From NCBI RefSeq assembly GCF_003633755.1, contig NZ_RBIL01000001.1:853426-917425 (forward strand): a stretch of 64,000 bases of DNA, written 5' to 3'. Below the pieces are notes generated by a model that saw only the letters and a list, made by a program, of their open reading frames with translations, was not told the origin of the DNA and did not search any database. Positions 61,054 through 64,000 of the stretch are shown here, one piece after another. A program made the translations under genes and the position numbers. The stretch comes from Solirubrobacter pauli (GTDB taxonomy: Bacteria > Actinomycetota > Thermoleophilia > Solirubrobacterales > Solirubrobacteraceae). Position 1 is the stretch's first letter, and each line of letters begins with the position of its first letter.

Positions 61054-62732
61054 GCGACGGCGCCAAGGTCCTGCGCCCCTACGTGCTGCGCCAGTGGCGC
61101 GCGCTCGCGGGCGCCTCCGCCGGCACCGCCGTGCTCGCCCTGGCCGAGCTGGCCAAGCCGTGGCCGATCGCGCTGATCGTCGACCACGTGATCGCCGACC
61201 GCGAGGCGCCCTTCACGCCCGACCTGACGCTCCTGCTCGGGATCGGCGCGATGATCCTCGCGATCGCCGTCGCCGAGTCCGCCTCCACGTACTTCACGGG
61301 CCTGTGGCTGCAGAGCGCCGGCGAGCGGATCGCGCATCAGCTGCGCGTCGCGATCTACGACCACCTGCAGCGGCTGAGCCTCGCCTACCACCAGCGCACG
61401 CCCAAGGGCGACCTCCTCACGCGCGTGACCGAGGACGTCAACGACATGGGCGAGCTGTTCAGCGACACGCTCGGCGAGATGCTCCAGAGCGCGCTGCTCG
61501 CGGTCGGCATGACGGTCGTGCTGCTGGTCATCGACCCCGTCCTCGCGCTGCTGAGCCTCGTCACCGCGCCGCTGCTGGTGATCATCAGCTTCGTCTTCCG
61601 GCGCAAGGTGCGCGACCGCGCGCGCCGCCAGCGCCGTCACGAGGGCGACCTCGCGAGCATCGCCAACGAGGCGCTCTCCGCCATGACCGTCGTGAAGGCG
61701 TTCGGCGCCGAACGGCAAGAGGCCGACCGCGTGCGCACCCGCTCCGAGCAGCGCATGGGCGTCGGCGTCGAGGTCGCCCGGCTCCAGGCCCGCTTCGACG
61801 GCACCGTCGGCGTGATCCGCGCCATGGCGACCGCGCTCGTGACCGTCGTCGGCGTGTTCCGCGTCGCCAAGGGCGAGCTGAGCGTGGGTGACCTCATCAT
61901 CTTCGTCTCCTACACGCGCAAGGCGTCCTCCCCCATGCGCTCGTTCGCGCGCGAGGCGGCCAAGCTCACCGCAGCGCTCGCCCGCGCCGACCGGATCGCC
62001 GAGGTCCTGACCGAGGACGACGTGATCGAGGACCGCCCGCACGCGTACCACGGCGGTCGGGCGCGCGGGGAGATCGAGCTGGAGGACGTCAGCTTCCGGT
62101 ACGCGCACGAGCGTCCCGCGTTGCAGGACGTGTCGATCAAGCTCCACGCCGGCCAGCGGCTCGCGCTCACCGGCGCATCCGGAGCCGGCAAGTCCACGCT
62201 TGCCGCACTCGTCGCCCGCTTCTACGACCCGACGTCCGGACGCGTGCTGATCGACGGCCGCGACGCCCGCGACTGCGCCCAGGCCTGGCTGCGCGACCAG
62301 ATCGCGGTCGTCCTCCAGGACACGGTGCTGTTCACCGGCACCGTGCGTGAGAACATCGCCTACGGGGCGGACGCCCCCGACGAAGCCGTCGTCGACGCCG
62401 CCAAGGCCGCCGCCGCGCACGACTTCATCCAGCGCCTGCCCGACGGCTACGACACGCGGCTCGGCCCGCAGGGCACGGGCCTCTCCGGCGGTCAGCGCCA
62501 GCGGCTCGGCATCGCCCGCACGCTGCTGCGCGACCCGCCGATCATCATCCTCGACGAGCCCACCACGGCGCTCGACCAGGACGCGGAGAACCAGGTGATG
62601 GACGGCCTGGACCGCCTGATGCGCGGACGGACGTGCATCCTCATCACCCACTCGGCGCGGCTCGCGAGCACCGCCGACCAGATTCTCGAACTCGACCACG
62701 GACGGATCACGGAGGCCACGACGCATGGCTAG
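61050..62732 (+). CDS. ABC exporter (fused permease-ATPase)
   Basis: 560 residues: six membrane helices (VLALAELAKPWPIALIVDHV, LLLGIGAMILAIAVAESAST, LLAVGMTVVLLVIDPVLALL) then an ATPase with Walker A LTGASGAGKSTLAALVARF (about residue 374), signature LSGGQRQRLGIARTLLR (about 479) and Walker B IIILDEPTTALDQDA. The half-transporter likely works as a homodimer. Homologues (MsbA-like) flip lipid-linked sugars or lipids. In this operon the likely cargo is the lipid-linked glycan made by the two glycosyltransferases. 8-nt overlap with the epimerase gene. Confidence 0.9.
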   Translation: MSDGAKVLRPYVLRQWRALAGASAGTAVLALAELAKPWPIALIVDHVIADREAPFTPDLTLLLGIGAMILAIAVAESASTYFTGLWLQSAGERIAHQLRVAIYDHLQRLSLAYHQRTPKGDLLTRVTEDVNDMGELFSDTLGEMLQSALLAVGMTVVLLVIDPVLALLSLVTAPLLVIISFVFRRKVRDRARRQRRHEGDLASIANEALSAMTVVKAFGAERQEADRVRTRSEQRMGVGVEVARLQARFDGTVGVIRAMATALVTVVGVFRVAKGELSVGDLIIFVSYTRKASSPMRSFAREAAKLTAALARADRIAEVLTEDDVIEDRPHAYHGGRARGEIELEDVSFRYAHERPALQDVSIKLHAGQRLALTGASGAGKSTLAALVARFYDPTSGRVLIDGRDARDCAQAWLRDQIAVVLQDTVLFTGTVRENIAYGADAPDEAVVDAAKAAAAHDFIQRLPDGYDTRLGPQGTGLSGGQRQRLGIARTLLRDPPIIILDEPTTALDQDAENQVMDGLDRLMRGRTCILITHSARLASTADQILELDHGRITEATTHG

Positions 62733-63708
62733 AGCGCTCGTCACCGGAGCCGCGGGGTTCATCGGCTCGCACCTCGTCGACGCCCTGCTCGCGGACGGCC
62801 ACGCCGTCCTGGGCGTGGACTGCTTCAACGACAACTACGCCGCCGAGGACAAGCGCGCGAACCTGGCGGGCGCGAACGACCACGACGCGTTCGAGCTGCT
62901 CACCGGCGACCTCGTCGACCTCGACGCGCACCGCCTCGTCGAGCAGAGCGACGTGATCTTCCACCTCGCCGGCGAGCCGGGCGTGCGCGGGAGCTGGGGC
63001 AAGCGCTTCGACCGCTACACGCACCACAACGTCGGCGCGACCCAGCACCTGCTGGAGGCGATGGCGGACGCGGGCGACGGCAAGCGGTTCGTGTACGCCT
63101 CGTCGAGCAGCGTCTACGGCGACGCGCTCACGCTCCCCACGCGGGAGGACGCGACACCGCGGCCGCTCTCGCCCTACGGCGTGACCAAGCTGGCCGCCGA
63201 GCACCTGTGCGTCCTCTACGGCGAGGAGCAGGACGTCAACACGGTCGCCCTGCGCTTCTTCTCCGTCTACGGCCCGCGCCAGCGGCCCGACATGGCGTTC
63301 CGCCGCTTCTGCGAGGCGATCGTCGGCGGCCGGCCGATCGAGGTGTTCGGCGACGGCCGCCAGTCGCGCGACTTCACCTACGTCGCCGACATCGTCGCCG
63401 CCACCCTCGCGGCGGGCTTCGCGGACACGCCGCCCGGACGGGTCTACAACCTGGGCGGTGGCGGCAGCGTGAGCGTCAACCGGGCGTTGGAGACGCTCGC
63501 CGCGCTCGCCGGCCGCCCGCTCGACGTCCGCCACGGCGAGCGCCAGGAAGGCGACGTCGCCGACACGGGCGCGGACACGGCCCGCGCCCGCGCCGAGCTG
63601 GGCTGGACGCCCGCGACCCCGCTCCGCGACGGCCTCGCCGCTGAGCTGGACTGGGTGCGCGAGCGCGCGGTCCCGTTTCCGCGCATGCGGAGCTTGAGCG
63701 CTTCTTGA
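62725..63708 (+). CDS. NAD-dependent sugar nucleotide epimerase/dehydratase
   Basis: 327 residues of the extended SDR family (GalE/UDP-glucuronate-epimerase-like). Cofactor motif ALVTGAAGFIGSHLVDALLA, catalytic Ser in FVYASSSSVYGDAL, Tyr-Lys in LSPYGVTKLAAEHLC, and FFSVYGPRQRPDMAFRRFCE for the nucleotide sugar. The product would supply an epimerised NDP-sugar to the two glycosyltransferases of the same operon. ATG start inside the last codons of the ABC exporter gene. It is the last gene before the operon end; 45 nt later another gene starts. Confidence 0.9.
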   Translation: MARALVTGAAGFIGSHLVDALLADGHAVLGVDCFNDNYAAEDKRANLAGANDHDAFELLTGDLVDLDAHRLVEQSDVIFHLAGEPGVRGSWGKRFDRYTHHNVGATQHLLEAMADAGDGKRFVYASSSSVYGDALTLPTREDATPRPLSPYGVTKLAAEHLCVLYGEEQDVNTVALRFFSVYGPRQRPDMAFRRFCEAIVGGRPIEVFGDGRQSRDFTYVADIVAATLAAGFADTPPGRVYNLGGGGSVSVNRALETLAALAGRPLDVRHGERQEGDVADTGADTARARAELGWTPATPLRDGLAAELDWVRERAVPFPRMRSLSAS

Positions 63709-63730
63709 CGTTCGCTCCACACTCGCTTGA

Positions 63731-63752
63731 GGGGACGTCCCGATACGTCCCC
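63731..63752. promoter_or_regulatory. 8-bp inverted repeat directly before the chemoreceptor-tip gene
   Basis: GGGGACGT and ACGTCCCC around a 6-nt spacer (CCCGAT), ending 1 nt before the ATG at 63754. The centre contains CCGATA, similar to the -10 element of flagellar sigma factors, but no clear -35 is seen. It may be an operator or hairpin. Confidence 0.4.
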
Positions 63753-63753
63753 C

Positions 63754-64000
63754 ATGTCCCGCTTCACGCCCAATCGCCCTGATCACCTCGTCGCCTCGAT
63801 CGTCGCCCTCGCCGAGCAGAGCAACCGCCTCGCGCTCGACGCCGCCATGGAGGCCGCTCGCGCCGACCGCGAGGGCCACACCGCCACCGTCGTCGACCAG
63901 ATCTGCCGCCTCGCGGTCGGCGCCGGCGTCTCCGCCGGCGAGATCGTCTGGCTCGTCACCGAGCTCGAGAGCGCGACCGAGGACCTCGGCCAGCTGGCCG
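63754..64000 (+). CDS. small orphan protein with chemoreceptor (MCP) signalling-tip sequence, 3' end outside window
   Basis: 82 codons visible. Residues 15-82 follow the methyl-accepting chemotaxis protein hairpin tip: IVALAEQSNRLALDAAMEAA (canonical I-x-x-I-A-x-Q-T-N-L-L-A-L-N-A-A-I-E-A-A), then RADREGHTATVVDQICRLA in place of RAGE-x-GrGFAVVA-x-EVR-x-LA, and GAGVSAGEIVWLV in the C-terminal helix. There is no sensor domain, membrane helix, HAMP domain or N-terminal arm of the hairpin upstream: the epimerase gene ends 45 nt before. The protein begins at the tip with a 14-residue lead (SRFTPNRPDHLVA). It could interact with CheA/CheW; function is unproved. Confidence 0.65.
   Translation, partial: MSRFTPNRPDHLVASIVALAEQSNRLALDAAMEAARADREGHTATVVDQICRLAVGAGVSAGEIVWLVTELESATEDLGQLA

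What the first reader, a model, noticed from the sequence alone, without database searches (positions are those of the whole stretch)
63754..64000. Orphan chemoreceptor hairpin-tip protein without receptor
The start of this gene encodes, nearly residue for residue, the conserved tip of MCP signalling domains (see the feature) but nothing of the sensor, membrane or N-terminal coiled-coil arm, and the upstream gene ends 45 nt away, so it is not a truncated receptor within this window. A free-standing tip could bind CheA/CheW, modulate receptor arrays, or have been recruited for another function. Several invariant tip residues are kept (E21, Q22, N24, E33, R36), while GFAVVA is changed to HTATVV, suggesting selection for a modified interface.
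Basis: partly seen in the sequence, partly recalled or inferred. Interest (0 to 1): 0.75.

Follow-up and report, generated by a model that had tools for sequence, protein, structure and literature searches.

The report
Free-standing protein from chemoreceptor tip
A small soil-bacterium gene family (genus Solirubrobacter) makes a free-standing protein cut from the signalling tip of a bacterial "smell" receptor; it is predicted to be refolded into a compact bundle, has lost the usual partner-binding residues, and sits in the same promoter family as receptor and second-messenger genes, so it looks like a receptor tip recruited to a new job.

Summary
Beyond the window edge the gene stops after 138 codons, so it is a complete stand-alone protein and not a cut-off receptor. 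Residues 12-75 are significantly related to the MCP hairpin tip (Pfam MCPsignal E 2.8e-8, just under its cut-off; 48 bits against a model of this genome's own receptors, shuffles at most 10). Five of six other Solirubrobacter genomes hold copies (up to three). Among 232 genomes of the order and 396 of the phylum, no other clear stand-alone copy was seen. AlphaFold predicts four separate helices (pLDDT 92.6, pTM 0.85), whereas the matching segment of a normal receptor from the same genome gives one continuous helix. Tip residues invariant in the genome's receptors (I377, N381, F396, R404 positions) are replaced in all nine family members, and the turn is one residue shorter. All copies share a promoter-like array (phased CTTGA-type repeats plus CCGATA) that also precedes receptors, a CheY-like regulator and c-di-GMP enzymes. 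Most likely this is a receptor tip recruited as an accessory protein of the chemosensory/c-di-GMP regulon. A direct CheA/CheW decoy role is possible but not favoured. Function is inferred, not shown.

The parts
63754..64000 (+). First 82 codons of a 138-aa free-standing MCP-tip-derived protein; the gene ends with its stop 170 nt beyond the window (genome C1:917595). Predicted helices: 9-39, 43-74, 78-107, 112-135.
   Evidence: conserved in 5 of 6 other Solirubrobacter genomes
63693..63730 (+). Four 11-bp-phased direct repeats (CTTGA 63693, CTTGA 63704, degenerate CTCCA 63715, CTTGA 63726); probable activator operator. It overlaps the last codons and stop of the upstream gene.
   Evidence: same spacing upstream of all family copies; pattern searches; downstream genes
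63740..63745 (+). CCGATA, probable -10 element at fixed distance (9 nt) from the last repeat; 8 nt before the ATG, so the mRNA is probably leaderless (inferred)
   Evidence: exact CTTGA-N9-CCGATA occurs only 3 times in the 7.1-Mb genome: this gene, its decayed paralogue, one MCP
62725..63708 (+). Upstream NAD-dependent epimerase-like gene (neighbour, end of a sugar/ABC-transporter cluster); synteny conserved with orthologues but no functional link shown

Best explanation
A genus-specific family of free-standing soluble proteins that descends from the tip of a chemoreceptor signalling domain. Shown: residues 12-75 are homologous to the MCP hairpin tip; the gene is complete; it is conserved and duplicated within Solirubrobacter; it carries a promoter-like array shared with chemoreceptor, CheY-like and c-di-GMP genes. 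Predicted: the chain no longer forms a long hairpin but four separate helices, most simply a compact single-chain bundle in which the C-terminal half packs where the second subunit sits in a receptor dimer. Inferred: because canonical CheA/CheW- and trimer-contact residues are replaced while core positions are kept, it does not act as a normal kinase-activating tip but as an accessory ('pseudo-tip') protein made together with receptors and c-di-GMP enzymes, binding a partner in that pathway through its altered surface.
For: Homology. Complete 138-aa gene. Family limited to the genus, orthologues 82-89% identical, three paralogues in one genome. Purifying selection, approximate dN/dS 0.2-0.37 among the four closest orthologues, GC3 about 0.9. 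Predicted four helices with pLDDT 92.6, pTM 0.85; the matching receptor segment comes out as one helix 2-141, pTM 0.53; prolines occur at the helix starts and loops in the family and nowhere in the 20 receptor segments. Tip residues invariant in receptors but lost in 9 of 9 members, core positions I16, A27, A31, A34, A54 kept 9 of 9. Regulon.
Against: No experiment and no complex prediction. The packing of the four helices into a single bundle was not inspected (no coordinates available), and the model rests on nine sequences. The main orthologue group still keeps Q22, N24, E33 and R36, as a functional tip would. Absence in one genome (G136) and decay of a second copy in the window's own genome show that members are dispensable.
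Confidence: 0.5

Rival explanations
1. A decoy or modulator of arrays: the free tip binds CheA-P5/CheW or enters receptor trimers and so titrates or jams signalling.
For: Tip homology; E33 and R36, equivalents of the trimer-contact residues E385 and R388, kept in 8 of 9; che genes and 20 receptors with an invariant tip in the genome; shared promoter array with receptors. Precedent: PMC4692393 cites work on soluble Tar and Tsr fragments (those papers were not read here) and shows that single-chain receptors can signal.
Against: N381 position is D/E/Q, I377 position R/K/T/A, the F of GFAVV and R404 are lost in all members, the turn is one residue short; divergent paralogues lose Q22 and N24 as well; predicted four-helix fold without the long arms.
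Confidence: 0.27
2. A decaying receptor remnant with no present function.
For: One paralogue in the window's genome is a remnant of about 45 codons, and G136 has none.
Against: Conserved reading frame, promoter and synteny in other genomes; dN/dS well below 1; three intact copies in G137.
Confidence: 0.08
3. The likeness to MCP tips is convergence of alanine-rich helices, not descent.
For: The C-terminal half shows no reliable homology; the protein is alanine-rich.
Against: 48 bits against at most about 10 for composition-matched shuffles; contiguous match over the turn.
Confidence: 0.04
4. An ordinary receptor cut by the window edge or by an assembly error.
For: Only the edge position suggested it.
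Against: In-frame stop at codon 139, about the same length in independent assemblies of other species.
Confidence: 0.01

Closest known systems
MCP signalling domain (PF00015), hairpin-tip subdomain
   Same: Residues 12-75 align over the hairpin with the LAL.AA.EAAR core
   Different: No sensor, HAMP or methylation arms; tip contact residues replaced; turn one residue short; predicted four short helices instead of a long coiled coil
Soluble single-chain MCP signalling domains of Rhodospirillum centenum and others (named in PMC4692393, citing Berleman & Bauer 2005 and Wuichet & Zhulin 2010)
   Same: Soluble, receptor-derived, probably one chain supplying a whole four-helix cross-section, function unknown
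   Different: Those are single-chain versions of whole signalling domains; here only one tip is recognisable, the second half is not a tip copy, and the protein is only 138 aa
Cytoplasmic (class IV) chemoreceptors such as Agrobacterium MCP514 (PMC8466855)
   Same: Soluble, tip present
   Different: MCP514 keeps a full signalling domain and trimer-contact residues; this protein does not
Engineered soluble Tar/Tsr cytoplasmic fragments (cited in PMC4692393, not read)
   Same: Free receptor tips in the cytoplasm
   Different: Natural, conserved, with altered tip residues

Membership tests
MCP signalling domain (PF00015) | Profile match above the curated cut-off | tested here: inconclusive
   34.2 bits against cut-off 34.6, E 2.8e-8; another member reaches E 1.5e-10
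MCP signalling domain (PF00015) | Hairpin tip sequence homologous to receptors | tested here: met
   48.4 bits, shuffles at most 10.4; divergent paralogues about 17 bits
MCP signalling domain (PF00015) | Long antiparallel coiled-coil arms with methylation helices | tested here: not met
   Only 138 aa, N-terminal side of the tip starts at an invariant Pro9; four short helices predicted
MCP signalling domain (PF00015) | Conserved tip contact residues (N381, I377, F396, R404 positions of Tsr) | tested here: not met
   Replaced or deleted in 9 of 9 members; E385 and R388 positions kept in 8 of 9. The role of these residues is partly from PMC8466855, partly from general knowledge
MCP signalling domain (PF00015) | Binds CheW/CheA and controls the kinase | not testable with these tools
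   needs binding or kinase assay
Natural single-chain soluble MCP signalling domains | Two tip-bearing signalling halves in one chain | tested here: not met
   C-terminal half scores like shuffles against the tip model
Chemosensory/c-di-GMP regulon of Solirubrobacter (defined here by the CTTGA-repeat array) | Phased CTTGA repeats and CCGATA upstream | tested here: met

The most novel reading that the evidence does not exclude
A natural single-chain mimic of a receptor-dimer tip: by breaking the receptor's C-terminal arm and folding it back, the protein makes a monomeric four-helix tip that docks into or caps chemosensory arrays (or a CheY-like/c-di-GMP partner) and tunes their assembly, a regulator class I found no description of.
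Probability: 0.2. Interest if true: 0.75.

Novelty: new variant of a known kind. Interest (0 to 1): 0.5.

Why it matters
The MCP tip is among the most invariant sequences in bacterial signalling. Here a lineage has cut it free, dropped hallmark residues and kept it under selection in the same promoter family as its receptors. It offers a small test object for which tip positions serve folding and which serve partner binding, and a possible natural regulator of arrays or of the link between chemotaxis and c-di-GMP. [quoted passage not shown]

Tried and rejected
Truncated receptor at the window edge: refuted by the genome. C-terminal half as a second tip copy: no signal. C-terminal half as the receptor's descending arm: suggestive alignment but only 6-11 bits with 0-4 of 300 shuffles reaching it for seven members and no signal for the two most divergent, so left open. 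Fold search in PDB: only generic helical bundles, no Foldseek match at E 0.001 or better; VIA-align Z up to 14 to designed bundles and STAT coiled coils, within the range noted for unrelated helical bundles; MCPs are not among the rows shown, which says nothing against the fold. Plasmid and viral collections: no relative. A general sigma28-like promoter: several receptors have TCAA/TAAA...GCCGATGA-like sequences, but this gene's array differs. One-mismatch versions of CTTGA-N9-CCGATA are near background (32 sites against 17 in the reversed control), so only exact or full-array sites were used. Complex prediction with CheA/CheW could not be run. Several papers on tip residues and on soluble receptor fragments are not held.

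Full report
What is there. The reading frame that starts at 63754 continues past the window for 170 nt and stops, giving a 138-residue protein. The window lies at G000:C1:853426-917425 of a 7.1-Mb, four-contig genome; the best relatives found by name are Solirubrobacter species. The neighbours are an NAD-epimerase-like gene upstream (stop at 63708) and a convergent PucR-type regulator-like gene downstream (named from the sequence, not scanned); this order is kept in the orthologous loci examined.

Is the tip likeness real? Pfam MCPsignal matches residues 12-108 with E 2.8e-8 and 34.2 bits, 0.4 bits under its curated cut-off; one family member reaches E 1.5e-10. Against a model of the tips of 20 receptors of the same genome the protein's residues 7-74 score 48.4 bits and the most divergent paralogues about 17 bits, while 300 shuffles of each never reached the observed score. 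The same genome has 21 receptor-type matches over the cut-off, a main che cluster (CheW, CheB-, CheR-, CheA-, CheC-, CheD- and FliM-like genes) and a second CheA-CheC-CheD-like cluster (names other than the CheW-domain proteins were read from sequence, not scanned).

The family. The window's own genome keeps only a remnant of the second copy, near C2:228250, with intact promoter array and about 45 codons. Over 232 genomes of the order and 396 sampled from the phylum, strong matches (E 1e-50 or better) were found only in this genus; the weaker matches lie in longer frames, nearly all receptor-sized, the shortest 212 codons. The first look scored only the best candidates per genome, so rare divergent forms could be missed. 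Approximate (Nei-Gojobori) dN/dS is 0.2-0.37 among the four closest orthologues and about 0.45-0.54 against a G137 copy.

Anatomy. In the alignment with the genome's receptors, positions kept in all nine members include I16, A27, A31, A34, G41 and A54. Positions nearly invariant in the receptors but changed in all nine are, in Tsr numbering from general knowledge, I377 (L in these receptors; R/K/T/A in the family), N381 (D/E/Q), V384 (I in these receptors; M), G390, E391, the F of GFAVV, E402 and R404. The turn is one residue shorter; exactly which residue is missing depends on the alignment. E385 and R388 positions are kept in 8 of 9. PMC8466855 lists F373, N381, E385 and R388 among Tsr residues important for clustering and function. 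The 20 receptor segments contain no proline; the family has proline at the start of helix 1, in the loop before helix 3 (three members), and in the loop before helix 4. AlphaFold gives helices 9-39, 43-74, 78-107 and 112-135 with pLDDT 92.6 and pTM 0.85. As a control, the equivalent 142-residue segment of a receptor from the same genome came out as a single helix 2-141 with pTM 0.53, so the break-up is a property of the family and not of the method on any such segment. That the four helices pack as one compact bundle follows from their lengths, the short loops and the pTM, but coordinates were not inspected. The C-terminal half is not a second tip and its descent from the receptor's descending arm is unproven.

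Regulation. All nine aligned copies, and the remnant, are preceded at identical spacing by CTTGA-N6-CTTGA-N17-CTTGA-N9-CCGATA (GATATG in one copy after the motif), then about 8 nt to ATG or GTG. Read in 11-bp steps this is four phased repeats, the third degenerate. The full pattern with up to three mismatches occurs four times in the genome, its reversed control never; the other two sites precede a receptor and a PAS-GGDEF-EAL protein. The first two repeats alone (CTTGR-N5-TCTTGA) occur five times without mismatch in the genome, all before signalling genes: this gene, the remnant, a 4HB receptor, a CheY-like 120-aa regulator and the PAS-GGDEF-EAL protein. Across the genus, after merging two near-identical genomes, about 20 of 26 sites precede the tip family, receptors (including a soluble HAMP-MCP), the CheY-like regulator, or GGDEF/EAL proteins; the rest look like background, in line with about four reversed-control matches (the tally is my own reading of those outputs). 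G136, which lacks the family, has no such site and fewer CheW-domain proteins than the others, but that is one lineage and proves nothing. 11-bp direct repeats next to a -10 recall OmpR/PhoB-type operators; this is from memory and not tested.

Mechanism. The tip has been cut free, its partner-contact surface changed, its core kept, and its gene kept in the same promoter family as receptors and c-di-GMP enzymes. The favoured reading is recruitment as an accessory protein of that pathway; a decoy that binds CheA/CheW or receptor trimers is the main rival. Natural soluble single-chain MCP signalling domains are known and their function was called unknown (PMC4692393); engineered single-chain receptors do signal (same paper), so a one-chain tip is mechanically plausible. 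Nothing here shows binding or a phenotype.

Verdict. Observation confirmed; identity as a conserved MCP-tip-derived, free-standing protein well supported; function inferred at moderate to low confidence. New variant of a known kind.

Noticed in passing
own genome C1:1730037, C2:1086669, C2:1204095, C2:1616829; L197, L198, L207, L217, L218, L219: A regulon with 11-bp-phased CTTGA repeats and CCGATA-like -10 joins chemoreceptors, a CheY-like regulator and c-di-GMP enzymes in Solirubrobacter; the regulator reading it is unknown.
   Followed up: partly
own genome C2:228195-228400 (L082): Remnant of a second tip-protein gene: intact promoter array and first codons, then a diverged frame that stops after about 45 codons; intact orthologues exist at the same locus in G135 and G138.
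   Followed up: partly
L220 (C2:239-243 kb), G135:C93, G138:C302: A second CheA-CheC-CheD-like cluster lies roughly 13-18 kb from the divergent tip paralogue (or its remnant) in three genomes.
   Followed up: partly
L122, L127 (upstream of MCP genes): Sequences like TAAA/TCAA ... GCCGATGA upstream of several receptors, resembling a sigma28-type promoter.
   Followed up: no
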